Source: a virus. From it: a stretch of DNA of 64,000 nucleotides. Each line of letters opens with the position of its first letter. Position 1 is the stretch's first letter. The stretch covers positions 1-64,000 of IMG/VR virus record IMGVR_UViG_3300031963_014654; one strand, 5' to 3'. Positions 2,356 through 62,593 of the stretch are shown here, in pieces. Both the position numbers and the translations under genes were made by a program. Below the pieces are notes generated by a model. It was not told the origin of the DNA. It saw only the letters and a program-made list of their open reading frames with translations, and searched no databases.

Positions 2356-2357
2356 TT

Positions 2358-3296: not shown

Positions 3297-3298
3297 GA

Positions 3299-3760: not shown

Positions 3761-3781
3761 GTTTTTATTTGTTTTAGGTTT

Positions 3782-4480: not shown

Positions 4481-4491
4481 TTATTTTGATT

Positions 4492-5076: not shown

Positions 5077-5080
5077 TTTG

Positions 5081-5814: not shown

Positions 5815-6314
5815 TGTTTAAATATTTTAGAACCTACAAACATTAATACAATTGCTGTTAATGCTAATAATAGGTATTGATTTGTTTTGTGTATTGAACT
5901 TCCTGGCAATTCGGTTGGAGTTGCTTGCTTTTGTTTTTCAATTATTTGTTTTTGAACAAAGGCAATGGTATCGAGTAATTCTATTTTTGATGCTTGATCG
6001 GTTGCTTTACTAAATTGTGTTGTAAGCGATTCTAATTCGGAGTTTAATTGACTTAAATTGTATTGTTTTACGTTTGAAACATAGTTATCAGGAGTAAATC
6101 CCGATTTAGTAACAAACAATTCTTTATCTGGATGAACCGAAATCATTGAATTGATAAATGAATCGCCATATTGTGCTGTTGCATAATCAACCATGGTAAA
6201 GTATTCGGCATGGCTTTTTGGCATTGGTAATGCAAATTGCTGTGTAAGCATTGGCAACACTTCGTTTTCGTTGTGTAATGCTATATAATGGATCGGATTA
6301 AGTGCGTTATACAT
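5811..6314 (-). CDS. tail-anchored membrane protein
   Basis: This gene encodes 167 residues, mostly helical with a Gln/Lys-rich segment (about 105-130) and a C-terminal membrane span (about 147-163). The start region overlaps the end of the capsid-like gene upstream by 8 bp. No family is recognised. The overlap with a capsid paralogue strengthens the case for a virion component. Confidence 0.66.
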   Translation of the reverse strand: MYNALNPIHYIALHNENEVLPMLTQQFALPMPKSHAEYFTMVDYATAQYGDSFINSMISVHPDKELFVTKSGFTPDNYVSNVKQYNLSQLNSELESLTTQFSKATDQASKIELLDTIAFVQKQIIEKQKQATPTELPGSSIHKTNQYLLLALTAIVLMFVGSKIFKQ

Positions 6315-6957
6315 TGTATTTGTTGCATTTAGGATTGCTATCCGAATTAATTAATTCAATTTTTTGAACTCTGTTTGGCTTTGAAGGTTCGGCATTTTCA
6401 ACAATGGAATCATTATTAAGAATGTTTTGCCTTACAATTTTTTGCTTTAATCTTATTACTAATCGAATTGTTGTGTTTCCTTTTATTGATCCACTAATAG
6501 CATGTATTCCATCTATTAACATCCCATTAAAATCCACAATTCGTATATTTTTGTTTGCGCTATATTGATTTTCTGGTTCAATATAGTTTAATGGTTGTAC
6601 TGTTTCTAATTCAACTAATCCTGTTGCCTCTCTCGAAAAGTATGATAAGTTATTATCTAAATTATCGGTATCGGTTGTGGAATAAAGAATTGAATCAATT
6701 ATGTAAGGATTATTATCAACTTCTCTTTTAACCTCGCCATGTGTTGCTCCATTTACATTTACTCTTACGCCTGTTGATGATCCTGCATTATTAGAAAAAC
6801 CATAAATATCGCCACCAAACAAAACATAAGAAAGACTTGTGCTAAGAGTATTTACAATTTCTACAACTAAAATTTTGTTTAACGCTTCAACTGTTTTTTC
6901 GGAAAGCCCTGTAAAATCGTTGATTTTCGTTTCAAATTTGTTTAAGAAATCAATCAT
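6307..6957 (-). CDS. capsid-like protein, paralogue of the 7035-7739 product
   Basis: This gene encodes 216 residues. It aligns by eye along most of its length with the 7035-7739 product. Shared segments include YVLFGGDIYG versus YVVFGNNIYG, AGSSTGV in both, VKRE in both, TDTDNLDNNLSY versus TSDADNLSNTISY, and PLNYIEPENQ versus PLNYQEPENN. The composition is beta-rich with no membrane span. It is probably a minor capsid or vertex protein made from a gene duplication. It lies downstream of a terminator that follows the main copy, so it is expected at lower levels. Confidence 0.65.
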   Translation of the reverse strand: MIDFLNKFETKINDFTGLSEKTVEALNKILVVEIVNTLSTSLSYVLFGGDIYGFSNNAGSSTGVRVNVNGATHGEVKREVDNNPYIIDSILYSTTDTDNLDNNLSYFSREATGLVELETVQPLNYIEPENQYSANKNIRIVDFNGMLIDGIHAISGSIKGNTTIRLVIRLKQKIVRQNILNNDSIVENAEPSKPNRVQKIELINSDSNPKCNKYNV

Positions 6958-6973
6958 TGGTGATTTGTTTTTT

Positions 6974-7005
6974 GAAAAAAAGCCAAAGAAACAAGTTCTT
7001 TGGCT
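6974..7005 (-). terminator. rho-independent terminator after the major capsid-like gene
   Basis: On the minus strand a perfect 10-bp stem AGCCAAAGAA/TTCTTTGGCT (6981-6990 with 6996-7005, 5-nt loop) is followed by a run of T (complement of 6975-6981). It sits between the 7035 stop and the next gene, so it probably attenuates downstream transcription and raises the relative yield of the capsid transcript. Confidence 0.85.
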
Positions 7006-7034
7006 TCTTTATAATTTACTTCCGTTTTTGGATT

Positions 7035-7739
7035 TTAGTAACCTAAAAACTTGCTACGTGTTGCAACATCAGGAGCAGCTACCGCTGTTGGTACAGCTAA
7101 AGGAGCAGAAACTTGTAATTGCAATGGAGCTTGTCCGTTTGGAGCAGGTCTTGAAGTTGTTACGATAACTGAATCATCAGAAGCAGCGTTACGTAAATCT
7201 ACTTTTGTACCTACTGAAAGGATTAAAGTGATTGTAGTACCTGTTTTAATGGTTCCTGTTAAATAACTACCACCATAAATATCCATACCTTCAAAGTCAG
7301 GAATACGAACCAATAAAGATTGGTTGTTTTCTGGTTCTTGGTAGTTTAATGGTGTTACAGGGATTGATTGAAACTTACCTGTTGAATCTTTTTCGATGTA
7401 CGAAATAGTATTCGATAAGTTATCAGCATCGCTAGTTTTGTACTTCGCCATTACCAATTGTGCAGGTGAGTTCGCTGTTTCGCGTTTTACCTGTGCGTGG
7501 CTTGATTCTGAAATTGTAACAGTAACACCTGTAGAAGATCCTGCAGAAGCAGCATCACCATAAATGTTATTACCAAATACAACGTAAGTTGCATCAGCAT
7601 TTGTTGCATTTGTAATTAATACCGTGAAAGTACGGTTTAATTGTTGCAAACGGTTAGCAGGAGCCATTCCGTTACCTCCAAAATTGGAGAAACGTGAAGC
7701 AGATCTAGCTACCAATGATTTGTAAGAATTTGGGTTCAT
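7035..7739 (-). CDS. candidate major capsid protein (single jelly-roll-sized, beta-rich)
   Basis: This gene encodes 234 residues. The basic N-terminal arm (about 1-25, MNPNSYKSLVARSASRF) is followed by a beta-rich core (about 30-185) and a Pro/Ala-rich tail. Two paralogues lie beside it. It has its own intergenic region upstream, a strong terminator downstream and regular codon choice, all typical of a highly expressed capsid gene. Size and secondary-structure character would fit a single jelly roll as in two-capsid-protein membrane viruses such as P23-77. This is inference; no capsid family signature is recognised with certainty. Confidence 0.6.
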   Translation of the reverse strand: MNPNSYKSLVARSASRFSNFGGNGMAPANRLQQLNRTFTVLITNATNADATYVVFGNNIYGDAASAGSSTGVTVTISESSHAQVKRETANSPAQLVMAKYKTSDADNLSNTISYIEKDSTGKFQSIPVTPLNYQEPENNQSLLVRIPDFEGMDIYGGSYLTGTIKTGTTITLILSVGTKVDLRNAASDDSVIVTTSRPAPNGQAPLQLQVSAPLAVPTAVAAPDVATRSKFLGY

Positions 7740-7790
7740 TGTTTTCTTTGTGTTTTTTTTGATTGATGTTTATTTTGCTTTTGAAAATAA

Positions 7791-7892
7791 TTAGCGACCT
7801 AACATTTTGTTTACGCTTGGTTTAACTAATTCTGCAACTAAAATCGCAACTACGATTACACCTGCATACATAAGGGCTGTTTTAAAATTCAT
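7791..7892 (-). CDS. 33-residue membrane miniprotein upstream of the capsid gene
   Basis: ATG at 7892-7890, TAA at 7793-7791. The product has one hydrophobic span (about residues 4-23) and a basic end, KPSVNKMLGR. It lies between a terminator and the major capsid-like gene, in the same transcript as that gene. Small abundant membrane miniproteins are typical of internal-membrane phages. The good frame, A-rich leader and placement support it. Confidence 0.65.
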   Translation of the reverse strand: MNFKTALMYAGVIVVAILVAELVKPSVNKMLGR

Positions 7893-8025
7893 TTTGAATG
7901 GGTTTTTTGGTTTTTAATTTTTTTTGACTATAATAAGTGATGCAAAATTCAGAAAACATTATAAATATGGAAAGTGCTTTTGTTTTACAATTATGTTTTT
8001 TGTAAATAAATAGGCTAAATGGCAC
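7893..8025 (-). promoter_or_regulatory. promoter-containing leader of the capsid transcript (candidate)
   Basis: No gene fits here. A terminator ends at about 8026, so transcription of the miniprotein and capsid genes should restart here. On the minus strand there is a TATAAT at 7963-7958 with TTG motifs upstream. A perfect TAnnTTTG box is absent. The exact promoter is uncertain. Confidence 0.35.
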
Positions 8026-8054
8026 TAAAAAAGCCACATTTTCCAATGTGGCTT
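8026..8054 (-). terminator. rho-independent terminator
   Basis: On the minus strand a perfect 10-bp stem AAGCCACATT/AATGTGGCTT (8031-8040 with 8045-8054, 4-nt loop) is followed by T residues (complement of the A run before 8031). It follows the 8103-8612 gene and separates it from the capsid transcript. Confidence 0.85.
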
Positions 8055-8102
8055 GTAATTTTATTTTTTACAAAAATTCTATTGTAAATATCAAATTTGA
8101 TT

Positions 8103-8612
8103 TTATTTTGGTACGCGTGTAAGTGTTAGGTTTGTTCCTGGTGCAAACAAATCAATTAATGATTTAATGAAATTTGACTTTTTTGTGGCTTGCTTTACCT
8201 TAATGATTACATCCATACGGCTATTGGCATTAATTACTCCTGTAATACCATCTTTACCTGTAATGGTAAGTTCGGGATTGCGAATTACAACAAAGTTTGG
8301 AATTGAATTAATTACATCTACATAATCAACCGGATTGAATGATACTTGCACGTATTTTCCTGTTGCATCACTATGCTGCAATGTAATTGGATTACTCAAT
8401 TGCTCATTGTTATTGGTGCGTATTTTAATTTCTTTTACATCAAAATAGGCTTGTGCGCTTTGGCGTGTTGCTTGCATAAGTGAACTTTCGGCTACATTTA
8501 CGGATACGCCTGGTCCACTTTGTAAGCCTTGGTTATAGCCAAATGCAGCCCATGGTAGGGCTGTTTTTGTATTATTTACTATTGTAATTGTGAGTGTATC
8601 GTTTTTAAACAT
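8103..8612 (-). CDS. third capsid-like paralogue
   Basis: This gene encodes 169 residues, beta-rich, without a membrane span. It shares the order of motifs seen in the 6307 and 7035 products: LPWAAFGYNQG in place of YVVFGNNIYG, GVSVNVAESS in place of GVTVTISESS, then TGKYVQ followed by PVDYVD. It is more diverged and lacks the basic N-terminal arm. A penton or second capsid protein is a reasonable guess. It overlaps the upstream gene by 8 bp and is followed by a terminator. Confidence 0.58.
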   Translation of the reverse strand: MFKNDTLTITIVNNTKTALPWAAFGYNQGLQSGPGVSVNVAESSLMQATRQSAQAYFDVKEIKIRTNNNEQLSNPITLQHSDATGKYVQVSFNPVDYVDVINSIPNFVVIRNPELTITGKDGITGVINANSRMDVIIKVKQATKKSNFIKSLIDLFAPGTNLTLTRVPK

Positions 8613-9270
8613 TGTGATTATGGATTGATGTTTCTGGTTGAATTATTTCGGGTGCTGTTTCAATTGGTGCAATTGTATTATCTATTACTGCTGCAGGTTC
8701 AATTGCTTTTGTATCTGCAATTGGTTCTGGATGTATTGTATTTTCTACATCGGCTTGCTGAATTGTTTGCATTGCGGAATCAACTGAACTTATCATGTAA
8801 TCGGATAATTCAAGTACTTCGTTTCGCTTGTCGGACATAAACGATTTAAGCATTTTCGAAAACATTTTTGGTATTCCAGGCATTTCGGCATTTGGATCCA
8901 TCGATTCCTTTTGAGCAACAAAATATTGCTTTATGTTTAATAAAAACGATTTTGGTACTTGAATGCTTACAACTTCATCTACAAAGGTTTCTGAATTTGG
9001 TAATTCAACTTGTTTTGTTGTTTGTAATTGTGTTCCATCGGCATTCAGTACAACCAATTCATCGGGCTTTACTTCTAAAAAATATTGTTTTTTAGTAAGC
9101 GTTAAATTGTAATGTTTTGATAAATGTGCTTTTACATTTTCATCGTCAGAGCATAAGCCTTCTGGATGCTCAATTAACACAATATCCCCACGTACTCCAT
9201 ATACGTATGTACGGTGCAATGGTTTATATTGATTAAATCCTATAAATTGTACTAAAGTTCCTTTTTTCAT
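8605..9270 (-). CDS. hypothetical virion-operon protein
   Basis: This gene encodes 221 residues. The first ~90 residues form a basic beta-rich domain (KKGTLVQFIGFNQYKPLHR) that could be SH3-like or DNA-binding. The rest is helical and ends in a Pro/Glu/Ile-rich tail (about 170-215). No family is recognised. It sits between the packaging-type ATPase and a capsid paralogue, so a role in assembly is likely. Confidence 0.58.
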   Translation of the reverse strand: MKKGTLVQFIGFNQYKPLHRTYVYGVRGDIVLIEHPEGLCSDDENVKAHLSKHYNLTLTKKQYFLEVKPDELVVLNADGTQLQTTKQVELPNSETFVDEVVSIQVPKSFLLNIKQYFVAQKESMDPNAEMPGIPKMFSKMLKSFMSDKRNEVLELSDYMISSVDSAMQTIQQADVENTIHPEPIADTKAIEPAAVIDNTIAPIETAPEIIQPETSIHNHNV

Positions 9271-9281
9271 TTTTTTTGTTT

Positions 9282-10277
9282 TTATTTGTTATTTGGTAAA
9301 TACATTTTTTTAAACTTTTCGGTTAATCGTTGTATTGCTTTTGAATGTACATCGGGGCTTTTTCGCTGTGCGGATGTAATTTCTTGGTCAAATACCATTG
9401 CTGTAATTTCATCTTGTATTACACGTGGATAATGCAAAATATATTTACGGCACGCAATGGCAAAGTTTTTATCGGATATTGGAAATAGTTTTCGTTTCCA
9501 ACGATCGATATAAATACAATACGATTTTGCTCCTAACCATTGTTCCTTGGTTATTTTTTGCGCTTCGTACAATTCATTTGCTAATGCATATTGCGCTTCT
9601 ACTGCAAAATGTGCAATCATTAACAAATTCATATCAAAATTGTTCTTTTTGTCGGCTGGCATACTCTCCGGACTATCTAATCCTTTGTGCAATCGAATAA
9701 AACGAACGTTTTCGCATTCGGTTACTCCCATTTTGCGCCATGCTTGGTGGGCAAATAAGGTATGGCAACCACGGTGGCGCAATCCCATCAAATTACCTAC
9801 TAAATCTTTGTCGCTCGATGTTCCAAATGCAGCATATCCATCAATATCATCAAATACGGCTAATCCGTTTCTGTAATTAGCCAATACATGCTTCATTACT
9901 TCTACTTTGCGCTTGCTATTCATGGCGCTACCATCACTATCAATTGGCGTTATTTGGCGTATTTCAACTGTTTTTTGAGAAACGAATTTTCGAATTGCTT
10001 CGGGTGTTGGTGGCAATGTTTTAAATTTTGCATAACCATCTTCGTTCTGAAAATTAAGAATAAGCACTTTTCTGCCATTTTTAACGCCTTGTATTGTTTG
10101 TGCGTACAATTTGCATTGCTCAATGTTTTTATGCGTTTTGCCAACGCCTGTAAGCCCAATTACGCTGGTAGAAAAACATTCCTCGGATTCAAATTTGAAT
10201 TTAGGAGCTGTATCCACTTTTGCTGCAGGATTTTTATCCTTTGGAGCTTGGTTATTTGTTGGTTTTTTGGGTTCCAT
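9282..10277 (-). CDS. P-loop ATPase, candidate genome-packaging ATPase
   Basis: This gene encodes 331 residues. A disordered N-terminus rich in K, P and N precedes Walker A GLTGVGKTHKN (about 40-50). Walker B is GLAVFDDIDGY (about 138-148). A HRGCHTLFAHQAWRK segment follows, positioned like the sensor/arginine region of HerA/FtsK-type packaging ATPases. No terminase large-subunit nuclease domain is present. A compact FtsK/HerA-like ATPase next to capsid genes is the hallmark of tailless membrane viruses. Zot-like assembly ATPases are the main alternative. Confidence 0.68.
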   Translation of the reverse strand: MEPKKPTNNQAPKDKNPAAKVDTAPKFKFESEECFSTSVIGLTGVGKTHKNIEQCKLYAQTIQGVKNGRKVLILNFQNEDGYAKFKTLPPTPEAIRKFVSQKTVEIRQITPIDSDGSAMNSKRKVEVMKHVLANYRNGLAVFDDIDGYAAFGTSSDKDLVGNLMGLRHRGCHTLFAHQAWRKMGVTECENVRFIRLHKGLDSPESMPADKKNNFDMNLLMIAHFAVEAQYALANELYEAQKITKEQWLGAKSYCIYIDRWKRKLFPISDKNFAIACRKYILHYPRVIQDEITAMVFDQEITSAQRKSPDVHSKAIQRLTEKFKKMYLPNNK

Positions 10278-11213
10278 TTATTTTACTTCTTCGGCTATTA
10301 TTGTTTCAATTTCTTCTTCGGTTTCCTTTGGTTCTTCTTTTGGACCGGATTGTTTAGGAGCTTGGCTACGGATTAAATCCATTAAGTTGTTTTCCAGAAT
10401 TTTGTTTTCTTTACGTATTTCAACAACTATTTTTGCTTTTTTAACTCCTATCATTAATAATCCAACCACTAACTTTTCGCCATTTGTTAATCCACGGATG
10501 CCTTTTTCTTGCATCATGGCAACCAATGGCTCGCGAATCATATCAATATCTTCATCGTCAAACTTAATTTTTTCGGTGTTTTTTTCGTTTTGCTCCTTAA
10601 TTTGTTCAACGGCACCTTTAAAATTATAAAATTCGCGGTGCAATTTTACTCCAACGAGCATTGGACCAAAAATACCAATTGCATAGTTTAATCCTTTTTG
10701 TCCAAAATCGATTAAATCGTTTGCCGAACCGGATGGAATGTTAAATGGACTTGTTCCATCACCACCATCATTTACGGTGTGCTGTTCGGCATAACCTTCA
10801 TCTCCTGGTGGCGTTGGTTCAAATTCCTCGTTTGGTGGTGTTGGTTCAAAATCATTTGCTGGTGCTGTATCTTTTGGATTTTGCGGATTTGGATTTGGCT
10901 GCGCTGTATCGGCTTTGGCTTTATCATTTACAGTAGATGCTGTTTTGTGCGAGTTTACGCCTGCATCGGTATAATCGCGTTCCACGGTTGGGCGTGCAAA
11001 TGGTTCCTCCGAAATATTAATTTTTCCAACTCCTTCCAATTCTACTTGGTTATCTATTGGTGTTTTTGTGGTTTTATCGTTTAGTTGATCTTCCATGCTT
11101 TTTCTGAATTGTGTGTGTGTTGTTGGTTGTTCTGGTGTTTGGTTTATTTCTTCTGTTGGTTTTGGTGGCTCGGCTGTTTGCTTTGCTTTTGGGATACGTT
11201 TTTTATATGACAT
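10278..11213 (-). CDS. hypothetical protein with acidic, Pro-rich N-terminal half
   Basis: This gene encodes 311 residues. About 1-155 are low-complexity (P, T, E, K, N), with two copies of EFEPTPPG/N-like repeats (about 121-134). About 165-280 are helical and contain an amphipathic or membrane-dipping stretch (YAIGIFGPMLVGVKL). It ends in acidic residues. The stop abuts the ATPase start exactly. It may be a scaffold or membrane-associated assembly factor; no family is recognised. Confidence 0.6.
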   Translation of the reverse strand: MSYKKRIPKAKQTAEPPKPTEEINQTPEQPTTHTQFRKSMEDQLNDKTTKTPIDNQVELEGVGKINISEEPFARPTVERDYTDAGVNSHKTASTVNDKAKADTAQPNPNPQNPKDTAPANDFEPTPPNEEFEPTPPGDEGYAEQHTVNDGGDGTSPFNIPSGSANDLIDFGQKGLNYAIGIFGPMLVGVKLHREFYNFKGAVEQIKEQNEKNTEKIKFDDEDIDMIREPLVAMMQEKGIRGLTNGEKLVVGLLMIGVKKAKIVVEIRKENKILENNLMDLIRSQAPKQSGPKEEPKETEEEIETIIAEEVK

Positions 11214-11214
11214 A

Positions 11215-11661
11215 TTATTGTTGTTTAAATTTTGTAATGTTATTTGTTATTTGCTGGTAAATGGTATGGTGATTTTTGTCGATTGCAGGAAGATCAACAA
11301 TGTTTTTCATTTTTTTTATATCCGCACTTATTTGGTTTCGAGTGTATGGATACTTAGGAAATTTGCTTTTTATTTTTGCTGCAGAAAGGTTGCAATGCAC
11401 TTTTAGCAGGTAAAAACAAGTTTTACGTGCTTTTTTGTACGGTTCGGTACGCGAAACGGCAAGGTTTTTTTGTTGCACTTTGTGGATTTCAACAACTTGT
11501 GCAACTATGTATTTTTGTAAATCGATTGAATGAAGCTGTGGATTACTTTCGAGTGAAAGTGCTTCGATAAGGTCGGCCGCTTTGGGGCTACCATGTTTAG
11601 CAATTAATGAATCAATTGCATTGTTGATACGCAATAGTGGGTTGTTTTCTGACATAAGCAA
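11215..11661 (-). CDS. putative DNA-binding protein
   Basis: This gene encodes 148 residues (146 if the second ATG, MSENNP, is used). A helix-turn-helix-like segment lies at about 90-118 (LSAAKIKSKFPKYPYTRNQISADIKK), basic and followed by a helical end. It may bind DNA as a regulator or packaging accessory. The call rests on composition and pattern only. It lies 1 bp before the next gene. Confidence 0.52.
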   Translation of the reverse strand: MLMSENNPLLRINNAIDSLIAKHGSPKAADLIEALSLESNPQLHSIDLQKYIVAQVVEIHKVQQKNLAVSRTEPYKKARKTCFYLLKVHCNLSAAKIKSKFPKYPYTRNQISADIKKMKNIVDLPAIDKNHHTIYQQITNNITKFKQQ

Positions 11662-11773
11662 ATTAATGAATATTAATATGCGCTATATCCTACCGGTTTT
11701 CCATTTTTTAGTAGTTATCAAGTATCAGCTTGATGCTGTTCCCATTATTTTTTTATGCGTGTTGTAATAAGTA

Positions 11774-12103
11774 TTAAATGTAAGTAGATTCGTTGAATTT
11801 GCGTACTGCTCTTTTGTCGAACCAAAAATATAATTTTGTAAAAGCCATAATTGCAAATGTGAATGTAATTGCAATAATTGCATCTTTTGTAAATAATGCG
11901 CTAAAAATAATTGCAAGCACTCCCATTCCATACGTAGTATCGGGGCTTTCTTTTGCATATACATCACATACATGGTACGTGGTATCGGATGGTCCTGCTG
12001 AAAAAGTAGCACCATGCATTTCGGCCATATCTTTACGTGTTTGAACGCCACTAATAGCTATTTGAATATCTTTGCCTTGGTTATTTTTTACGTATAAAAT
12101 CAT
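11774..12103 (-). CDS. two-span membrane protein
   Basis: This gene encodes 109 residues. The N-terminal half is polar; two hydrophobic segments lie at about 61-72 and 75-92. A second open frame overlaps almost all of it (11725-12051). I prefer this one because it gives coherent membrane segments and begins after an A-rich leader. A 110-bp gap to the next gene holds nothing recognisable. Confidence 0.55.
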   Translation of the reverse strand: MILYVKNNQGKDIQIAISGVQTRKDMAEMHGATFSAGPSDTTYHVCDVYAKESPDTTYGMGVLAIIFSALFTKDAIIAITFTFAIMAFTKLYFWFDKRAVRKFNESTYI

Positions 12104-31700: not shown

Positions 31701-32138
31701 TTAATTATTTATTTTGTTTACTTTATCGTGGAGAATTTCCAGAAAATCGTGGCTAACTTCAAATATTCTAGTATCTGGATCATTATCAATTTCTTCGGCA
31801 ATCCATTGCGTTAATTCCTGGTGGAGTAACAACATGTTTTCTGTTTTGGTTTGCTTTTCCTGTAATTGAACTATTTGATTCCTTAAACCTTGGTTTACTT
31901 CTTCTTTATCGATTAAATTGTTTTGTAGCCTATCGCGTTGTTCCTCTGCTACAACAACTTCGCTTTTTAAATTTTCGCATTCAGTAACAAGCATATCGTT
32001 ATAATTTTCTTGCAAAATCAATTGATTAAGCAATACGGTTATTTCGCTTGTTTCAAATTCGAGTGGTCCATCTCCAAAATCAGCAATTTTATTTTTGATT
32101 TTTTCAAGTGTTTCTTCAGTTTTTAGTTCGTTAGCCAT
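31701..32138 (-). CDS. coiled-coil protein
   Basis: This gene encodes 145 residues, largely a coiled coil (about 50-120), acidic, without a membrane span. It overlaps the neighbouring gene by 8 bp. No family is recognised. Confidence 0.5.
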   Translation of the reverse strand: MANELKTEETLEKIKNKIADFGDGPLEFETSEITVLLNQLILQENYNDMLVTECENLKSEVVVAEEQRDRLQNNLIDKEEVNQGLRNQIVQLQEKQTKTENMLLLHQELTQWIAEEIDNDPDTRIFEVSHDFLEILHDKVNKINN

Positions 32139-32334
32139 TTTTTTTAAGATTTGTTATTTTCAAATTACACTTGCCACCACAATCATCGCTTATGGAGCTG
32201 TGGTGTACTGCATGTTTTGATTTTAGTTTTAATTCTACTGCTTTTTTTGCTTCTGCTTTGTTTCGAGCATAGGTTGTTGTGCATCCAAAAAAATGCTTAC
32301 AACTATAATCGCATGAAAATTTTAAATTGTCCAT
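32131..32334 (-). CDS. small Cys/His-rich protein
   Basis: This gene encodes 67 residues with Cys and His in SCDYSCKHFFGCTTTYARNK and DDCGGKCNLKI, plus HAVHHSS between. These may form a zinc-bound fold. No family is recognised. Confidence 0.52.
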   Translation of the reverse strand: MDNLKFSCDYSCKHFFGCTTTYARNKAEAKKAVELKLKSKHAVHHSSISDDCGGKCNLKITNLKKNG

Positions 32335-32347
32335 TTTTTTGTTATTT

Positions 32348-33187
32348 CTAAATTTTAATCCAATCTGCAGGAATTAAATCCTGTGTATTGTAATGGTTTA
32401 ATTGTGGTCCGAACCATTGGTTTGGTGCAATTGTGATTCCGTATTGGTTATCAAAAAACATGTTTTTGGCAAGCCATGCAGCCCACCAACTAAAACTACT
32501 GTTTGCAATAATGTGGCTTTTGCATTGGGCCATTAAAAACAAATCCACAATATCGGAGTTTCCAGATACAAAATGGAGCTTGCAAATATCGTCCGGAACG
32601 GTTATGTTTTGTTTGCACCATTCAATATCATCTGAAAATACAATAAAATTAACCATTGACTTTACAGGAAATTCAAAATCTTTATAACTTAATAGTTTTA
32701 TGATTGCTCTATTGTAATAATCGGTTTCGGATAATGGTGGATGGCAATCTGGCTTTTGCAAATAATCGCCTCTACGAACATGAATTGCTACGGTATTTTG
32801 TAAATTCAAAAATTCGGCTCCTGCATTTCGAACAACACGCAAAAATTCGTTTTTTGGCATAAAGTGCCTGATAATCAAATCTTTGTTTTGAACAAAATAC
32901 TTTTCTGACTGAAAAAAGCCATGCAAAATTGCATTTTTTTCCAATGGTAATGGTTTGTATTCGAATTGCAGGGCAAGTAATGGGTTATGCATTATGCCAT
33001 TAAATTTGCAATCGTATGTTGTATCCAAATTATCATCAATTGGATTGATAAAGTATTTATTGTATTCCCATGTGGTAAATTGGGCTGCATCGTTTACATT
33101 GGCTGCATGTGATAATGTAGCTGCAATTTGAAACAATTGATTGCCTAACCTACCGGTATTTGGTGGATCAATTTTAAATATTACCAT
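32348..33187 (-). CDS. alpha-1,2-fucosyltransferase-like (GT11)
   Basis: The start at 33187 (MVIFKIDPP) is used because a longer frame would overlap the upstream gene by 137 bp. The product has 279 residues. GRLGNQLFQIAA near the N-terminus, VAIHVRRGDYL in the middle, FIVFSDDIEWCK and ANSSFSWWAAWL near the C-terminus are the ordered motifs of GT11. It would transfer fucose from GDP-fucose, commonly to galactose. Fucosylated glycans on Bacteroidetes surfaces or on the virion are possible targets. Confidence 0.85.
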   Translation of the reverse strand: MVIFKIDPPNTGRLGNQLFQIAATLSHAANVNDAAQFTTWEYNKYFINPIDDNLDTTYDCKFNGIMHNPLLALQFEYKPLPLEKNAILHGFFQSEKYFVQNKDLIIRHFMPKNEFLRVVRNAGAEFLNLQNTVAIHVRRGDYLQKPDCHPPLSETDYYNRAIIKLLSYKDFEFPVKSMVNFIVFSDDIEWCKQNITVPDDICKLHFVSGNSDIVDLFLMAQCKSHIIANSSFSWWAAWLAKNMFFDNQYGITIAPNQWFGPQLNHYNTQDLIPADWIKI

Positions 33188-38324: not shown

Positions 38325-38942
38325 TTATTTAATTTTCCAAATATAATCATGTTCGGTTAATTGTTCAACTTTTTTATGTGTTTTTTTCAACAATTGTTCA
38401 ATTTCGGCTTGGTTGTATTGTTCCTCTATGCAAATATGGTTTACACGGTGGCGCATTGTTTCGAATCCTTTTAATGCTTGTGGTTCGTATCCTTCCACAT
38501 CTAAGCTCAATAAATCTATTTGTTGATTAATTGGCAAATAATGGAAAATAAGTGTGTCTAATTTAATTGAATAGCAAATTTGCTTAACTCCTGGTTCGCC
38601 TGCTTTTTTTAAATGATCGCTTTCGGTATTTATTCCGGCAACGGTGCTCATTAATCCATTGCATTCGGGAGTATGAATTAATTCTATTTTTTGATTATCG
38701 TGCTCACCAAGGGCTTTGTTTACAATAATTGTGTTGTGATGCCTATTGCGTACACATGCTTGAAACTGTTCGAATATTGGTTCTACCAAAATACCGGTCC
38801 ATTGCATTTGTTGTTCAAAAAATGCGGTATTTGATTGTGTTAAACCATCGTTTGCGCCTGCTTCGATAAAAAAGCCTTTTTTAATTCCATCAAAATACTT
38901 TTGGCGGAGTAATTTATCAATATTGTTTATGGAGTGGTACAT
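38325..38942 (-). CDS. FkbM-family methyltransferase
   Basis: This gene encodes 205 residues. GFFIEAGANDGLTQSNTAFF is the SAM-binding start. GILVEPIFEQFQAC and DLLSLDVEGYEPQALKG are the hallmark FkbM motifs. It would O-methylate a sugar or similar group using S-adenosylmethionine. Its place among glycosyltransferases points to methyl-capped glycans. Confidence 0.86.
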   Translation of the reverse strand: MYHSINNIDKLLRQKYFDGIKKGFFIEAGANDGLTQSNTAFFEQQMQWTGILVEPIFEQFQACVRNRHHNTIIVNKALGEHDNQKIELIHTPECNGLMSTVAGINTESDHLKKAGEPGVKQICYSIKLDTLIFHYLPINQQIDLLSLDVEGYEPQALKGFETMRHRVNHICIEEQYNQAEIEQLLKKTHKKVEQLTEHDYIWKIK

Positions 38943-43442: not shown

Positions 43443-43470
43443 CAAATATAATTATTTTTTTATAAACAAA
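43443..43470 (-). promoter_or_regulatory. Bacteroidetes-type promoter
   Basis: On the minus strand TTTG at 43470-43467, 16 bp, TATATTTG at 43450-43443. It overlaps the 3' end of the HNH gene. It would start transcription just before the 43203-43421 gene and the genes after it. Confidence 0.5.
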
Positions 43471-44018
43471 TCTATTTGGTCGGGTTGCTTAAATTCCTTC
43501 CAATTGAAGTCTTTTTTTGTTTTTGTTTTGTGGCAAGGCTTGCACAATGGCTTGAAATTTCCTAACCAACAACCACCACCGCCATGCTTAACAGGTATAA
43601 TGTGATCTATATCTTCCCAATCATTTTCGTTGCATTCGCAACACTTGCTTCCGTAATATGTATGAAGAAGAACTTTTGCCTCTTTTGTTCCGTAAGCAAT
43701 TATTGAATAAACACGGTATGCAAAGTTTTTACAATTTTGGTCGGCCCAACTAAATTTTGCTTTTTGTCCGCAACCACAACGGCAATCGCCATTATCGTTT
43801 TTTGGAAACAGAGCTTCTATTGTTAATTTGCCTTGGTTTCTTCTGTATGGATTAATTAAATGGCTTATTCGTTGATATATTTCTGTGGGATTAAAGAATA
43901 TTAATCGCAATCGATTATTCCAATATCCCATTCTTAAAGAATCTTCCAAAAACCATTCGGGAGCACTAATTTCCTTTTGTGGTAATGGCTTTATTGTTTC
44001 CGCATTTATTTCCATCAA
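43452..44018 (-). CDS. HNH endonuclease domain protein
   Basis: This gene encodes 188 residues. The N-terminal part contains a CRCGCGQKAKF zinc-type motif. The C-terminal HNH core has SKCCECNENDWEDIDHIIPV, then GGGGCWLGNFKPLCKPCHKTK. The D-H and N and H ligands are intact. It would cut DNA. A homing or host-degradation role is possible. Its start overlaps the glycosyltransferase upstream by 4 bp. Confidence 0.83.
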   Translation of the reverse strand: MMEINAETIKPLPQKEISAPEWFLEDSLRMGYWNNRLRLIFFNPTEIYQRISHLINPYRRNQGKLTIEALFPKNDNGDCRCGCGQKAKFSWADQNCKNFAYRVYSIIAYGTKEAKVLLHTYYGSKCCECNENDWEDIDHIIPVKHGGGGCWLGNFKPLCKPCHKTKTKKDFNWKEFKQPDQIDLFIKK

Positions 44019-49546: not shown

Positions 49547-49723
49547 TTAGTTGTTTTTTAAAATTGGTTGATTACCTGTTAAAATTGCTTTGTCGGACTT
49601 GTTTCCAACCCATTGATAGCCATCTTTATAGCTTACTTTGTGATTATCTTCGTATCCTTTACGAAGTAATGGTGTGGCTACTTGTGCGCAAGCAATACGC
49701 TGCTGAACTGAATTTTTGCTCAT
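49547..49723 (-). CDS. 58-residue basic protein
   Basis: ATG 49723, TAA 49549-49547. The protein (MSKNSVQQRIACAQVATPLL ... KGYEDNHKVSYKDGYQWVGN) is well placed 6 bp before the next gene, on the leader of an FkbM 3' remnant. No family is recognised. Confidence 0.6.
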   Translation of the reverse strand: MSKNSVQQRIACAQVATPLLRKGYEDNHKVSYKDGYQWVGNKSDKAILTGNQPILKNN

Positions 49724-49733: not shown

Positions 49734-49773
49734 TTAGTTTTGTTTTATGTTTTTACGAATATAGAACTTATCT
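49734..49773 (-). pseudogene. 3' end remnant of the FkbM gene
   Basis: The minus strand reads DKFYIRKNIKQN then stop, almost the same as the current end of the FkbM gene (DKFYIRKNINKG, 50542-50581). The first 30 bp are identical to 50552-50581. It is most simply the original end of that gene, displaced by the inserted cassette. Confidence 0.7.
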
Positions 49774-49967
49774 TATGACTTTTGAAGAAATTTTATTTTC
49801 TTTTTTTCACCAATCATTGAATTATAGTCTAATTCAACTTTTAATGAATTAATTATTTTACCTGCCGTATTTGCAAGCTCTTTACCCATTTTCAAATCCA
49901 TTTTTTTTGTTTTCATTTGCTCATAATTATCAAGCAAACTAACTCTTAATTCTTCGATGTTTTGCAT
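49773..49967 (-). CDS. small companion protein of the nuclease-like gene
   Basis: This gene encodes 64 residues, helical (LANTAGKIINSLKVELDYNS). The stop lies inside the left direct repeat. It overlaps the nuclease-like gene by 22 bp, so both move together. Similar small proteins accompany HNH genes in phages as far as I recall; no defined function. Confidence 0.58.
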   Translation of the reverse strand: MQNIEELRVSLLDNYEQMKTKKMDLKMGKELANTAGKIINSLKVELDYNSMIGEKKKIKFLQKS

Positions 49968-50536
49968 AGTCTTTTTGTTTGGATTAATATTCTTTTAATT
50001 TCTAATAATTCTGGATTCTCCTTCAATTGATCCACGGTATATCCGTTTTTTTCCCTTAATAATTTACTTACATACCTATCCGCAATTTGCTCCCTTTTCG
50101 TCTTTTCTTTTTTGCTATCCCTTAAATTTATTTTTGCTCTGTTTTTTTTATTATAATCTTGATATGTTTTTTTGTTTTTGATATAATCATTTTTATTCCA
50201 TACTTCGTTTTTTTGTTTCTTTTTACATGTAGGGCAATATTTAGCAATCAATATCCTATCAAACAATGAAGTTCCGCATCTCTTGCATAGGTTTTTAGCT
50301 TTTTTTTCTAAAATAATTTTTTCCTTTTTTTCACGATTTTCTTCTGCATTTTTAGAATGCCATATTTTAGAATTGTTACGATACCTTTTTAACTTTTCTG
50401 GATTATTTAATAGCCAAATTTTATGATTAGCATATACGCATGATTTACAGCTACTTGTGTATTTCCCTTTTTTAATTTGAAATTCGGATATTTCTTTTTT
50501 ATCATTGCATTTAGTGCAAATCTTAAATTCAACCAT
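49946..50536 (-). CDS. zinc-finger nuclease-like protein (HNH/homing-type)
   Basis: This gene encodes 196 residues. The N-terminus FKICTKCNDKKEISEFQIKK and CKSC, and the middle NLCKRCGTSLFDRILIAKYC with CPTC, form two CxxC...CxxC zinc motifs as in phage homing nucleases. A clear HNH catalytic core is not visible. The rest is very basic. Position inside the 30-bp repeats supports a mobile nuclease. Confidence 0.58.
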   Translation of the reverse strand: MVEFKICTKCNDKKEISEFQIKKGKYTSSCKSCVYANHKIWLLNNPEKLKRYRNNSKIWHSKNAEENREKKEKIILEKKAKNLCKRCGTSLFDRILIAKYCPTCKKKQKNEVWNKNDYIKNKKTYQDYNKKNRAKINLRDSKKEKTKREQIADRYVSKLLREKNGYTVDQLKENPELLEIKRILIQTKRLCKTSKN

Positions 50537-50541
50537 AACGT

Positions 50542-51186
50542 TTAACCTTTATTTATGTTTTTACGAATATAGAACTTATCTCCCCAATGGCAATCGGTCA
50601 TTTTGCATTCGGCTGCTTCAAATCCATGTTCGGATAAAAAAGCATCAATTTCATGTACCAATGCACAACCTTTGTAAAGCTCCTGATCATTAACTTCGGT
50701 ATAAATGTAATTTATGTGCTTTAGGTTATTTTCCATGCCTTTTAATGCAAGCAATTCGGCACCTTGAATATCTATATTCAAAAAATCGTAATACTCCATA
50801 TCAATGCATCCATGTTCAATTATATCATCTGCGGTGATGGTAATCATTTCAATTGATTGCACATTTTGAACGGAAGGATGGTATTCCAAATGCTTATCGA
50901 GTGGCAAAAAGGATGAAGATTCGCCATTATTGTTGGTAATGTTGAATGTAACTGATTGAAGTGATTTATCACTTACACATGCTTGTATTGCAAATGCATG
51001 TGGGTTTGATTCGATGTGTTTTTGAAGTTGTTCGAAAATTTCGGGGATTGGTTCAATCCAAATTTGATTTTCAACTCCTTTATCCAGGTATTGTTGTGCC
51101 TCCTGCCCTGTATTGGCACCAATATGGAATACACCCTTGGGGCGTATTCCGTATTTATCTATAAGTGTTGCGAATGGTATAAGCAT
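50542..51186 (-). CDS. FkbM-family methyltransferase
   Basis: This gene encodes 214 residues. GVFHIGANTGQEAQQYLDKG is the SAM site, IWIEPIPEIFEQLQKH and DFLNIDIQGAELLALKGME are FkbM hallmarks. It would O-methylate a sugar residue. The last residues (DKFYIRKNINKG) lie in the direct repeat of the adjoining cassette, so its C-terminus was recently replaced with a near-identical one. Confidence 0.86.
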   Translation of the reverse strand: MLIPFATLIDKYGIRPKGVFHIGANTGQEAQQYLDKGVENQIWIEPIPEIFEQLQKHIESNPHAFAIQACVSDKSLQSVTFNITNNNGESSSFLPLDKHLEYHPSVQNVQSIEMITITADDIIEHGCIDMEYYDFLNIDIQGAELLALKGMENNLKHINYIYTEVNDQELYKGCALVHEIDAFLSEHGFEAAECKMTDCHWGDKFYIRKNINKG

Positions 51187-53197: not shown

Positions 53198-53754
53198 TTT
53201 ATTAAAGAAAGTGTTTTTGGTATTCCGTTTTTAAAAAAGAATGTAGTAGTCCAACCTGTATAAGTAAATCCGTATTTGTCGGGTTCGTGTTGGTATGTTT
53301 CTATTCGTTGAAAACTATTCATTAAATTTTTTCCTGGTGCATAATACTCGCGTTCGGAATTATCCAATATTAAAACTCCATTTTTGGCTAAATATGGCAA
53401 TGCGGATTGAATACATGCTGCACGATTGCGCCCATCTACCAAAATAATATCGTATTTATCCCCAATTTTAGCTGCTTCGGCAATAGCATCGTGGTAAGAT
53501 TGCTCCCTGCGCATTAACATACCATCTTGAGGCTTTGCTAAAAAACTTTTAGCTTGTTTGGTAATCTCATCCCACCATTGTGTATCGTGCTCCACAGAAT
53601 GCAGCACTTTTACATTTTTTTGCTTTAAAAACCAAATGGTGCTTGCTCCCATTCCGTATTCGAAAATACGCAAATCTTTGCCATTATCAATTATTTTTTG
53701 AAGTATTCGATTAGCTTCTTCGGTAAGCCATGGTTCGGTGCGTAGTTGGTCCAT
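53194..53754 (-). CDS. class I SAM-dependent methyltransferase
   Basis: This gene encodes 186 residues. RIFEYGMGASTIWFLKQKNV is motif I, HSVEHDTQWW motif II, YDIILVDGRNRAACIQSALP motif IV region and LILDNSE motif V. The start is inside the end of the integrase gene, in another frame (44-bp overlap). Substrate unknown; next to a GT6 gene. Confidence 0.8.
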   Translation of the reverse strand: MDQLRTEPWLTEEANRILQKIIDNGKDLRIFEYGMGASTIWFLKQKNVKVLHSVEHDTQWWDEITKQAKSFLAKPQDGMLMRREQSYHDAIAEAAKIGDKYDIILVDGRNRAACIQSALPYLAKNGVLILDNSEREYYAPGKNLMNSFQRIETYQHEPDKYGFTYTGWTTTFFFKNGIPKTLSLIK

Positions 53755-54592
53755 TTGAGTTTAAATTTATATGTGATATTGGAGTTTGTATTTTGCTAAT
53801 TGTATTGTGGCTCAAATGTAAGTAAATATTTGTTGTTTTTACATTGTTGTGCCCTAATAATCGTTGTATTAAATTAATATCTGTACCATATTCTACCATG
53901 TGCGTAGCACTTGTGTGGCGAATAAGGTGAGCATATATTCGCTTATTGCAAATTCCGGCTTTATCGGCCAATTGTTTTAAAACTTGGTTTACGCTGCTTT
54001 CGGTATATTGAATATCAAATTGGCCATTTAACACATACGTTTGGGATTTGTATTGATAATAATATGTTTCCAACAATTTTATTAAATCGGGATCAAGTGG
54101 AACTTGCCTATCTTTTTTGCCTTTTGCTTGAATGATATTTATTATCATTCTACTACGATCAATGTGTTGCCATTTAAGGTTTATTAATTCGGAAACACGT
54201 AAGCTGCAGGAGTAAAGTAGCGATAATATTACTTTGTGCTTTAGGTTTGCACATACATCAAACATTTTTTGTATTTCCTGTACCGACAAAACGATTGGTA
54301 ATTTTTTGTCTTTTTTAGAAAAAGGAATTTTTTCTAATTTAATGGGCATTCCAACTGTTATTGAATAAAAGGATTTTATTGCACATAGTTTATGGTTACG
54401 TGTATTTATTGTTGGAAACGTTAATAGCCATTCTTTAATTTTTTGCGTTGAAATTGCTTTTGGCTCTGTTTCGCTGCTAAAATATTTTAAGAATGTTCCA
54501 ACCGAACACAAATAGTTTTCTTGCGTTCGCTCACTTGGATATTTTAACTTACAATCTGTCGAATATTTATCATACCATTTTCGAAATTCCAT
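53711..54592 (-). CDS. tyrosine recombinase (XerC/D-like)
   Basis: This gene encodes 293 residues. An N-terminal SAM-like core-binding domain (about 5-85) is followed by the catalytic domain: YSCSLRVSELINLKW (first Arg), HLIRHTSATHMVEYG (H-x-x-R), LLGHNNVKTTNIYLHLS (His and Tyr nucleophile). The extra integron-integrase insert was not seen. It has an AAGGAGGT Shine-Dalgarno, unlike other genes here. It abuts three methyltransferase genes with attC-like spacers, and its last ~15 codons run over the next gene. It is the likely mover of that array. Confidence 0.9.
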   Translation of the reverse strand: MEFRKWYDKYSTDCKLKYPSERTQENYLCSVGTFLKYFSSETEPKAISTQKIKEWLLTFPTINTRNHKLCAIKSFYSITVGMPIKLEKIPFSKKDKKLPIVLSVQEIQKMFDVCANLKHKVILSLLYSCSLRVSELINLKWQHIDRSRMIINIIQAKGKKDRQVPLDPDLIKLLETYYYQYKSQTYVLNGQFDIQYTESSVNQVLKQLADKAGICNKRIYAHLIRHTSATHMVEYGTDINLIQRLLGHNNVKTTNIYLHLSHNTISKIQTPISHINLNSNGPTTHRTMAYRRS

Positions 54593-55670: not shown

Positions 55671-56372
55671 CTACACTACTGCTAAAATTGAACTTTCGAT
55701 TATTTCTTGACATAATTCTTTTGGTATTTTTGAACGGTTAAAACTTCCTTTTTTGCCTTGCGTTCCTGTTTTCGATCCTCTTGGTGCAGGTTGATGATGA
55801 CAATTTTTGTTTCCGTTGTGGCACATTGGTCTTGGTTGCCATACTTCGCTATTTGTCCATATATCCGTTGGCTTTGCTCTATCGTCGCCATAAGTACAAT
55901 ACCAAACCGTATGCCTTTTAAATCTTTGCATAAATGGCATTTTACGCATCATTCCTCTTGGGTTTTCAATAAAGAATACCATTTTAGGATTAATCAAAAG
56001 CCATTCATCGATTAGGCTAATAAAGTGTTGGTTTACTGCATCGCATTTTTTAGCGTATTCGCTTTTTGGATCTGTTCCATTTCGGTGTGTGCTTATTGCT
56101 GCAATAGTGTAAGTTGTGCAATCAGGAGAAGCCCAAACAACATCTGGAATAAATGGCACATCTTTAGTTTGTAATTCTTCAATATCAATGGCTAAATCTA
56201 TTTTATCAAACTTTTGCCAATCAATACTAAAAACATTCATCCCTTTTGCTTCGGCTACACTTCCAACGGATCGAGAACCAGCGAATAATTCTACTAAATT
56301 ACCCGTGCCATCTGCTAACATCGGTTTGGCAAAATTGCCGTTTGGTGCTTCTATTGAACTTTTATCTATCAT
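55671..56372 (-). CDS. C5-methyltransferase-like phage protein
   Basis: This gene encodes 233 residues. LVELFAGSRSVGSVAEAKGM is the SAM motif, VWASPDCTTYTIAAIS holds a Pro-(Asp)-Cys motif in place of PC, and FFIENPRGMMRKM resembles the ENPxG motif of phage cytosine methyltransferases. The PDC rather than PC spelling is usual in this branch. Target base and site unknown. It sits between sites B and C. Confidence 0.75.
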   Translation of the reverse strand: MIDKSSIEAPNGNFAKPMLADGTGNLVELFAGSRSVGSVAEAKGMNVFSIDWQKFDKIDLAIDIEELQTKDVPFIPDVVWASPDCTTYTIAAISTHRNGTDPKSEYAKKCDAVNQHFISLIDEWLLINPKMVFFIENPRGMMRKMPFMQRFKRHTVWYCTYGDDRAKPTDIWTNSEVWQPRPMCHNGNKNCHHQPAPRGSKTGTQGKKGSFNRSKIPKELCQEIIESSILAVV

Positions 56373-60583: not shown

Positions 60584-62593
60584 TTATCTTGATATAAATG
60601 TCATCATAGGCATAACTGTTGCTGTCATACCCATTGCTGTTATGTTTACAGCACTTGGTAGTTGTGAACCACCATAAGCAGCCGAACCTGTTGATGTTGC
60701 AACGCCCCAAGGAATTTTAACTAAAGTGTTTGCTGTTCCTGTGTAAGCTGCGGTACTTGAACCTAATCCCCCTGCACTTACAGGTGCCGCCATTACATTA
60801 CCACCTAACGCAAAAGCCATTCCACCGTTGGCGCTTGATGAACTTTGTCTTTGATGAATACCCACCCAATAAATCCCTTCACTCATACTCATAGTGTTGC
60901 CAAAACCAAAACTCATAATTCTATTACCTGCTGTACCAAATAAAGATTGTGCTTGTGCTGTTGTGGTTGCATTAAAGTTAGAATATGTGTATCCTCCTGC
61001 TGTTCTATAAGACGCTGGACAATTTATAGTAAAACTTACAGAACTACCTGTTAAACCAACCGAATAAGAACTTGAACTAATAAGGCTTAATGTTCCTGCA
61101 TTATTTGAAAATAGACCAAATTGATGTGTAACAGTATGGCTAAATGCAACCGATGAACTAACAACCGAAGCTGTCATTAATTGTTCTAATTGATTAAATT
61201 CAATAGGTTCCAATAATAAAACAGGGAAATACCATGCAGATGCACTTGTTACTCCTTGCGCCCCTAAAGTTTGCACCCCTGTTGATGCAGGATAGTAAGG
61301 GATATGAGTTTTTATTGGTTGTTTATCTACTGTTAAAGTAATACTATTCCCATTTATAGATTGGCTCATTCTTATCCCATCCTCTCCAACAAAAACGATT
61401 TGACCACCTGCACCAGCTACCGTTCCTGTTGTTCCTGCTGTATTTCCAAATGTAGAAACACCAACATTTATAGCATTAAATGATGCCGTAATTGTTGATC
61501 CGCTTAATCCAAAGGATAAATTATTTGAATTGGCAAAAGATACATTTGCAAGTGCTGCATTTGTTGATCCTGCACTAAATGTTACATTTCCTGCTGCTGC
61601 ATTTGGTGCGTCAATAACAACACTTCCATTGCTTACTCCAACTGATACTGCACCTTGCCCTTTGAATATAAGATTACTTAATGCAATTGTTCCAGATGAA
61701 CTATTTGTAGTATTGCTTGTTGCGTATGCTGTAAGTTGTGTTAATCCGCCACCTGCTGCAACTGATATGGCTAATCCATTGCTATTTAATGTAACGCTTG
61801 CATTTGTAGCACTTGTTCCTGTGCCTGCATAACCTGCTGCATTAATAGAAATTCCACTACTATTTACAGTCCATGTTACATTGGTTTGGGCTGTATTTAA
61901 ACCAACTCCATCATTTGATGCACGTGCTGTTGTTAAATAGTTTGTTTGTACGCTTGCTGTTACAATTCCATTTGTTTCTAATCCAAATGTTACACCATTT
62001 AAGTTTGAAAAAGTTACATCCGACCTGTTGGAAGATAATGTGCCTGCACTTACTTTTATTGCTGATAATAATCCATTTGTTGTAACAGGAGCAGCTACCG
62101 AAACAGCTAATCCATTGCTATTTAATGTAACGCTTGCATTTGTAGCACTTGTTCCTGTGCCTGCATAACCTGCTGCATTAATAGAAATTCCGCTACTATT
62201 TACAGTCCATGTTACATTTGTTTGGGCTGTATTTAAACCAACTGCAGGTTGTGTGCTTTGTTGTGTTATACCATTGTGCGATGCTGTAATAACAGAACTA
62301 TTGCTCATTCCAAATGTGATTCCATTTTGGTTTGAAAATAATACAGAATTTGTGCTTCCTGCTGTTTGTGTTCCTGCTATTAATATATTTCCACCATCAC
62401 CTGCACCACCAGCATTAGCCGATAATACAATTGTGGAACCTGTAATGGATGCTGTTAAATTACCTGCAGCGGATAAATAAATATCACCACCGGTAATTGA
62501 TGTTCCACCTGCTGTATTTCCTGTAAGTAAAATACTTTGCACCATTTGCACGCTTTGCGATGCCTGTATGTTTCCAAATTCTGATAGTGCCAT
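60584..62593 (-). CDS. fibre-like protein with repeated Asn/Ser/Gly/Thr-rich units
   Basis: This gene encodes 669 residues. The N-terminal ~430 residues consist of repeats with SNxNGVTFGL, SVITASH and SSGISINAAGYAG-type lines, typical of phage receptor-binding or collagen-like fibre proteins. One 112-residue repeat occurs twice at nucleotide level (61770-61907, 62106-62243). The C-terminal ~240 residues are a separate domain with Gly/Ser-rich strands. No signal peptide. It probably trimerises and binds host glycans. Confidence 0.66.
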   Translation of the reverse strand: MALSEFGNIQASQSVQMVQSILLTGNTAGGTSITGGDIYLSAAGNLTASITGSTIVLSANAGGAGDGGNILIAGTQTAGSTNSVLFSNQNGITFGMSNSSVITASHNGITQQSTQPAVGLNTAQTNVTWTVNSSGISINAAGYAGTGTSATNASVTLNSNGLAVSVAAPVTTNGLLSAIKVSAGTLSSNRSDVTFSNLNGVTFGLETNGIVTASVQTNYLTTARASNDGVGLNTAQTNVTWTVNSSGISINAAGYAGTGTSATNASVTLNSNGLAISVAAGGGLTQLTAYATSNTTNSSSGTIALSNLIFKGQGAVSVGVSNGSVVIDAPNAAAGNVTFSAGSTNAALANVSFANSNNLSFGLSGSTITASFNAINVGVSTFGNTAGTTGTVAGAGGQIVFVGEDGIRMSQSINGNSITLTVDKQPIKTHIPYYPASTGVQTLGAQGVTSASAWYFPVLLLEPIEFNQLEQLMTASVVSSSVAFSHTVTHQFGLFSNNAGTLSLISSSSYSVGLTGSSVSFTINCPASYRTAGGYTYSNFNATTTAQAQSLFGTAGNRIMSFGFGNTMSMSEGIYWVGIHQRQSSSSANGGMAFALGGNVMAAPVSAGGLGSSTAAYTGTANTLVKIPWGVATSTGSAAYGGSQLPSAVNITAMGMTATVMPMMTFISR
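61770..62243. repeat. near-exact 138-bp repeats, 336 bp apart
   Basis: 61770-61907 and 62106-62243 agree apart from a few bases. They encode the same module in the fibre gene and would allow repeat-number change by recombination. Confidence 0.8.

What the first reader, a model, noticed from the sequence alone, without database searches (positions are those of the whole stretch)
49734..50581. 30-bp direct repeat cassette that replaced the end of an FkbM gene
Exact repeats at 49744-49773 and 50552-50581 flank a zinc-motif nuclease-like gene and a small partner. The left copy with its remnant reads DKFYIRKNIKQN-stop, nearly the same as the current C-terminus. The insertion carried a replacement 3' end, so no gene was lost. 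It may be a new class of gene-sparing mobile unit.
Basis: partly seen in the sequence, partly recalled or inferred. Interest (0 to 1): 0.72.

Follow-up and report, generated by a model that had tools for sequence, protein, structure and literature searches.

The report
Mobile phage gene pair duplicating its target
A small two-gene cassette that turns up at many different places in phage genomes has landed in the last codons of a virus gene, leaving a 30-base copy of the target on each side and the gene still complete; the bookkeeping resembles known gene-sparing elements, but the cassette itself appears undescribed and is not a demonstrable nuclease.

Summary
In detail: an exact 30-bp direct repeat (49744-49773, 50552-50581) brackets two genes in a 70.5-kb IMG/VR virus record. 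Joining the flanks over one copy restores an FkbM gene of the same length (214 aa) ending KQN instead of NKG. The insert is foreign-looking (26% GC against 34%). The pair is a widespread phage module: 46 and 146 relatives were confirmed in two IMG/VR scans. It consists of a hypervariable first protein with a constant C-terminus, plus a 64-aa helical-hairpin partner. Related phages carry it at different loci, and flanks that are 97% identical can hold unrelated first genes. The first protein has an endonuclease-VII-like zinc finger but no catalytic motif, and about half of the family lacks the finger, so 'nuclease' is unsupported. Edge repeats of this kind occur in only 2 of 115 other modules (L042, L049); in L042 the duplicated piece is a gene start. 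Gene-sparing 3' replacement is therefore not a defining feature. Best reading: ectopic capture of a mobile phage cassette by error-prone break repair that duplicated about 20-30 bp of target, kept because it spared the gene. Fungal mitochondrial mORFs and e14/icd are precedents for the principle. The window's own empty site was not found.

The parts
50552..50581 (-). right copy of the 30-bp direct repeat = codons of the FkbM C-terminus (DKFYIRKNI)
49744..49773 (-). left copy of the 30-bp repeat, directly after the partner gene (its first base is the last base of the partner's stop codon)
49734..49773 (-). remnant of the pre-insertion FkbM 3' end, reading DKFYIRKNIKQN-stop
49774..50551 (-). 778-bp insert between the repeat copies, 26.1% GC (0.6th percentile of the window)
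50542..51186 (-). FkbM-type methyltransferase, target gene; the Pfam domain covers residues 21-190 of 214, so the altered tail lies outside it
49946..50536 (-). first module gene (196 aa): zinc finger, helical linker, second zinc ribbon, constant C-terminus; no nuclease catalytic motif
50438..50518 (-). N-terminal zinc finger CTKC...CKSC (endonuclease VII / HNH-associated type)
50225..50287 (-). second zinc ribbon CKRC...CPTC, shared with L029-L032
49946..50089 (-). family-constant C-terminal segment (DRYVSKLLREKNGYTVDQLKENPELLEIKRILIQTKRLCKTSKN)
49773..49967 (-). 64-aa partner gene, overlapping the first gene by 22 nt; predicted helical hairpin (pLDDT 93.5)
49547..49723 (-). 58-aa gene that followed FkbM directly before the insertion

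Best explanation
The cassette is a mobile two-gene phage module (variable DNA-binding-like protein plus constant helical partner) that entered the last ten codons of fkbM by an ectopic, non-homologous event. A break or stalled fork in fkbM was repaired by copying the module in from another phage and rejoining about 30 bp upstream of where copying had left the target, which duplicated those 30 bp. The insert's first bases (TAAAGGTTAA) supplied three codons, a stop and a ribosome-binding site, so FkbM stayed 214 aa long. The tail outside the FkbM domain tolerates the change, so the insertion survived. Shown: repeat, composition, module family, its presence at different loci, and two further modules with edge repeats. 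Inferred: the break-repair route, the direction of the event, and that the module's proteins bind DNA. Unknown: whether they promote the event.
For: Exact repeat, unique in the record; restored FkbM of equal length; insert GC 26.1% against a 33.6% mean. Module family in IMG/VR: 46 and 146 confirmed relatives in two scans. Homology between modules at different loci ends at the partner's stop codon (L018 against L022), and the constant C-terminus plus partner recur in unrelated surroundings (L024 against L017). The polA/exonuclease slot is filled by the module in L062, L095, L103, L113, L130 and L132, while in L083 that slot holds another gene and the module sits elsewhere. Independent edge repeats: L042 29/31 and L049 21/22, with 2 copies only in each contig. 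Without the window: 2/115 against 5/3804 control pairs scoring 17 or more, p=0.016; exact edge matches of 10 bp or more 7/75 against 17/1096 in same-phage controls, p=0.0005. Repeat sequences share no core, and the right boundary falls at slightly different points around the partner stop, as for illegitimate repair rather than defined ends. T4 precedent: illegitimate break repair with microhomology lets homing elements enter ectopic sites (PMC2988022).
Against: No uninserted relative of this fkbM site was found, so the direction (insertion rather than loss of a second fkbM) is inferred. Most modules have no edge repeat, so the repeat may belong to a minority route. The p-values rest on only two clear cases outside the window, and the L023-type dispersed element shows that repeats at edges can have other causes.
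Confidence: 0.6

Rival explanations
1. Homing-type co-conversion, as in fungal mORFs: the module was already resident at the 3' end of fkbM in a donor phage and came over with the donor's fkbM end, leaving the recipient's own end as the left copy.
For: mORFs show this anatomy: imported C-terminus upstream, native C-terminus downstream (PMC3630166). The two fkbM ends differ in the last three codons yet stop at the same codon.
Against: The copies are 30/30 identical and then drop at once to unrelated sequence; the mORF copies read here are 51-279 bp and the inserted ends are 64-81% identical to the native ends. No catalytic motif. No fkbM is seen next to any of the modules examined (tblastn of FkbM against the loci gave no hit).
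Confidence: 0.15
2. The cassette is a true transposon-like element whose own proteins make a staggered cut of about 20-30 bp, giving target duplications in a fixed size range.
For: Three insertions with 22-31 bp near-exact duplications at the module edges; an excess of 10-11 bp edge matches in further modules (5/73 against 17/1096, p=0.009).
Against: No fixed termini: the left edge lies from about 24 bp before to 18 bp inside the first gene, and the right edge falls before, within or after the partner stop. No catalytic domain, no terminal repeats, no edge repeat in most members.
Confidence: 0.1
3. Remnant of a tandem fkbM duplication: FkbM1 - pair - FkbM2, in which nearly all of FkbM2 was deleted.
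For: A second FkbM-like protein is encoded at 38325-38942 (by eye), so paralogues may exist in this virus.
Against: The deletion would have to end exactly at the partner stop codon; it does not explain the low GC of the pair or its presence elsewhere without fkbM.
Confidence: 0.07
4. Site-specific integration by a tyrosine recombinase, the repeats being attL and attR, as for e14 in icd.
For: A tyrosine recombinase gene lies at 53711-54592; such elements restore the 3' ends of genes (PMC6379469).
Against: The insert has no integrase; the repeats of the window, L042 and L049 share no core sequence; the family sits at many unrelated sites.
Confidence: 0.05
5. Assembly artefact of a metagenomic contig.
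For: The record is an IMG/VR metagenomic virus record and reads were not available.
Against: Intact frames across both junctions, a plausible restored gene, and a coherent family elsewhere.
Confidence: 0.03

Closest known systems
Fungal mitochondrial mobile ORFs (mORFs), e.g. Allomyces macrogynus atp6; Glomus sp. atp6, atp9, cox2, nad3 (PMC3630166)
   Same: An inserted ORF flanked by two copies of the target gene's 3' end; the upstream copy keeps the gene usable and the downstream copy is a remnant.
   Different: mORFs encode LAGLIDADG or GIY-YIG endonucleases; the copies are longer and diverged because one is imported. Here 30 bp, identical, no catalytic domain, two genes, and a virus genome.
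Free-standing homing endonuclease genes of phages (T4 seg/mob; ICP1 T5orf172 HEGs; PMC2988022, PMC10448857)
   Same: Sporadic occurrence between conserved phage genes, zinc-finger DNA-binding parts, domain shuffling with one constant part, occupation of exchange boundaries.
   Different: No nuclease domain found; constant C-terminus plus a small partner always present; about half of the members lack the zinc finger.
Phage endonuclease VII / HNH-associated zinc-finger proteins (PHROG 1035, 2255, 2340)
   Same: N-terminal CxxC...CxxC finger and charged helical linker.
   Different: The match covers only the finger and linker; the catalytic half is absent and the C-terminus is family-specific.
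e14 prophage in E. coli icd (PMC6379469)
   Same: The insertion supplies a replacement gene 3' end, leaving a duplicated pseudo-end beyond the element.
   Different: 163-bp pseudo-end, site-specific integration, kilobase-sized prophage.
Tenacibaculum phage JQ, record positions about 31918-32474 (MT002873)
   Same: The same two-gene module in a cultured phage (34% and 47.5% identity), overlapping genes.
   Different: No flanking repeat; annotated only as hypothetical protein, the partner not annotated as its own gene.

Membership tests
Homing endonuclease (HNH / EndoVII / GIY-YIG) | catalytic nuclease motif | tested here: not met
   Pfam finds no nuclease domain in 53 members; PHROG matches of the window protein cover only the zinc finger/linker region; motif scan negative for the window; AF2 model shows finger plus helices, no significant PDB match.
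Homing endonuclease (HNH / EndoVII / GIY-YIG) | cleavage of the uninserted allele | not testable with these tools
   Needs a biochemical assay.
Homing endonuclease (HNH / EndoVII / GIY-YIG) | same insertion site occupied or empty in relatives | tested here: inconclusive
   For the polA/exonuclease slot L083 lacks the module but holds another small gene; no relative of the window site was found.
mORF-type gene-sparing element | duplicated 3' end of the target gene flanking the insert | tested here: met
   30-bp duplication and restored FkbM.
mORF-type gene-sparing element | upstream 3' end imported and diverged from the native one | tested here: not met
   30/30 identity between the copies; only the last three codons differ.
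mORF-type gene-sparing element | 3'-end duplication as a recurrent property of the family | tested here: not met
   2 of 115 other modules have comparable edge repeats; L042 duplicates a gene start, L049 a short ORF start.
Transposon with target-site duplication | short direct repeats of target at both ends | tested here: met
   Window 30 bp, L042 29/31, L049 21/22; absent from most other modules.
Transposon with target-site duplication | defined element termini and a transposase | tested here: not met
   Edges vary relative to the ORFs; no transposase or other catalytic domain in the pair.
Tyrosine-recombinase element with att repeats | own integrase and a common att core | tested here: not met
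   No integrase in the insert; the three repeat pairs share no core.
Phage moron-like mobile cassette | sporadic extra genes with aberrant composition between conserved genes at varying loci | tested here: met
   GC lower than the locus in 106 of 117 modules.
Phage moron-like mobile cassette | own promoter and terminator | not tested
   -

The most novel reading that the evidence does not exclude
The two-gene cassette is an autonomous phage mobile element of an unrecognised type: its variable protein and helical partner together direct insertion, with a duplication of about 20-30 bp of target, into gene ends and starts, and swapping of the variable region re-aims it.
Probability: 0.1. Interest if true: 0.75.

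Novelty: new variant of a known kind. Interest (0 to 1): 0.45.

Why it matters
It identifies an apparently undescribed mobile gene pair, annotated at best as hypothetical or 'endonuclease', that is common in uncultured phages, and gives three insertions with readable junctions. If the pair drives its own spread, it would be a selfish phage element without a recognised nuclease. If not, it shows how break repair in phages can add genes at gene ends without loss, using a small target duplication, which is the same outcome as fungal mORFs by another route. The swap of the variable region between phages with 97% identical flanks (L006/L039) is a testable sign of selection for diversity.

Tried and rejected
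Single-protein scans of viral contigs with FkbM, the first gene, a glycosyltransferase and a putative ATPase found no relatives of this virus; a degenerate pattern for GDKFYIRKNIK gave none; blastn of the region against INPHARED gave none. So the window's own empty site could not be shown. L023's 83-bp edge repeat was rejected as a target duplication because the same sequence is dispersed between genes of those phages. The L004 repeat is internal to its first gene. Sampling 395 and 299 bacterial genomes found no modules beyond those already known, so the module is rare in prophages. A mispaired-phage control for edge matches was replaced by a same-phage control because shared composition could inflate the contrast. 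The partner's structure gave no informative PDB match. Site-specific recombination was rejected for lack of a shared core.

Full report
Observation. On the minus strand the order is fkbM (50542-51186), a 196-aa gene (49946-50536), a 64-aa gene (49773-49967) and then a 58-aa gene (49547-49723). An exact 30-bp direct repeat lies in the last codons of fkbM and again directly behind the 64-aa gene. It occurs only twice in the record, which is a 70,501-bp virus record of IMG/VR, and is far beyond what window pairs of equal geometry give (30 against at most 16 in 1042 controls). Joining the flanks over one repeat copy gives an fkbM gene of 214 codons ending ...DKFYIRKNIKQN, leading into the 58-aa gene; the present gene also has 214 codons and ends ...DKFYIRKNINKG. 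The 778 bp between the copies have 26.1% GC, lower than 99% of windows of that size.

What the pair is. The 64-aa protein led to Tenacibaculum phage JQ, which has both genes in the same overlapping order, and then to IMG/VR: 7, 46 and 146 confirmed relatives in successive scans, some overlapping. In almost all (111 of 116) the first gene overlaps the start of the partner gene. The partner is well conserved and predicted as a confident helical hairpin. The first protein has a constant C-terminal segment (D-Y...PELIE-KR...IK-KR) and an otherwise variable body: about half (27 of 58 non-redundant members) have a CxxC...CxxC finger, and many consist of charged repeats of the YREANKEK type. The window's protein shares its full length, including a second zinc ribbon, with L029-L032 (46% identity).

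Is it a nuclease? Only the finger and linker match phage endonuclease VII / HNH profiles; Pfam finds no nuclease domain in any of 53 members, the window protein has no HNH or GIY-YIG motif, the model shows a small finger followed by long helices, and neither PDB nor BFVD gives a convincing full-length structural match. The family may descend from finger-bearing homing-type proteins, but a nuclease function is not shown.

Does it move? Modules with closely related constant parts sit in unrelated surroundings. Between L018 and L022 the similarity runs to the last base of the partner's stop codon and no further. In a group of phages the module fills the slot between a DNA polymerase gene and an exonuclease-like gene (L062, L095, L103, L113, L130, L132), whereas the related L083 has another small gene there and carries its module elsewhere; the names of these two neighbours rest on their sequence motifs as read by eye. 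L006 and L039, about 97% identical in the flanks, hold unrelated first genes between a shared start codon and a point about 70 nt before the partner. The pair is rare in bacterial genomes.

Are edge repeats a property of the family? Of 115 testable other modules two have clear ones: L042 (29/31) and L049 (21/22), each with no further copy in its contig. L023's longer repeat is a dispersed intergenic element. In L042 the duplicated piece holds the ribosome-binding site and first six codons (MNTTPD) of the downstream gene, which the first module gene now uses as its own start; in L049 it is the start of a short ORF, and the partner's stop codon lies in the repeat. Two of 115 against 5 of 3804 control pairs gives p=0.016; exact edge matches of 10 bp or more occur in 7 of 75 against 17 of 1096 in a same-phage control, p=0.0005. 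So duplication of target at the edges is a real but minority feature, and gene ends and gene starts are both affected.

How it most likely works. The repeat identity (30/30, 29/31, 21/22), the lack of a shared sequence and the loose edges relative to the two ORFs point to duplication of the target during a non-homologous insertion, most simply by repair of a break that copies the module and rejoins upstream of the exit point. Illegitimate break repair that lets homing elements enter ectopic sites is documented for phage T4 (PMC2988022). Sparing of fkbM follows because the hit lay in the last ten codons, outside the FkbM domain (residues 21-190), and because the insert begins with an in-frame stop. 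That the event was an insertion and not the loss of a second fkbM is inferred, since no relative of this virus could be found.

Comparison. The anatomy is that of fungal mitochondrial mORFs, where an endonuclease ORF is flanked by an imported and a native copy of the gene's 3' end (PMC3630166), and of e14 in icd (PMC6379469). It differs in the short identical copies, the absence of a catalytic domain, the two-gene make-up, and in not being a rule for the family. In distribution and modular shuffling it works like phage homing genes (PMC10448857), but the defining catalytic feature was tested and not met, so it is not filed as one.

Verdict. Observation confirmed; interpretation partly supported; a new variant of a known kind, of moderate interest.

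Noticed in passing
L006:3345-3989 and L039:3375-3989: Phages with about 97% identical flanks and near-identical partner genes carry unrelated first genes; the exchange runs from the start codon to about 70 nt before the partner, a sign of rapid swapping of the variable region.
   Followed up: partly
L014:3579-4022 and L017:3375-4022: Same neighbours and partner, but one first gene has a zinc finger and the other does not.
   Followed up: partly
window 43452-44018 (-): A gene with a Pfam HNH domain above the curated cut-off (PF01844); a better nuclease candidate than the one in the finding.
   Followed up: no
L020, L023, L027, L028, L033 (TAACGGTTTGC... element, e.g. L023:2151 and 3022): A dispersed intergenic element of about 60-80 bp, in some cases running into the next start codon, in related phages; it can mimic target duplications. 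Similar words occur in L050 and near window 55660.
   Followed up: partly
window 1-12000 (-): Many small genes with C-terminal transmembrane-like segments and a putative P-loop ATPase (9282-10277) without Pfam, PHROG or INPHARED matches; the virus may belong to an undescribed group.
   Followed up: partly
window 55671-56372 (-); L020:2533, L026:3429, L050:3606: The window gene's start (MIDKSSIEAPNGNFAKPMLAD) resembles the N-terminal leaders of the first genes in L020, L026 and L050 (e.g. MIDRNTNV...FAKPMLAEVP), which suggests a shared, shuffled 5' leader.
   Followed up: no
window 61770-62243: Exact internal repeats of 86, 26 and 24 bp at a spacing of 336 bp inside the 669-aa gene 60584-62593, probably a structural or fibre-like protein.
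   Followed up: no
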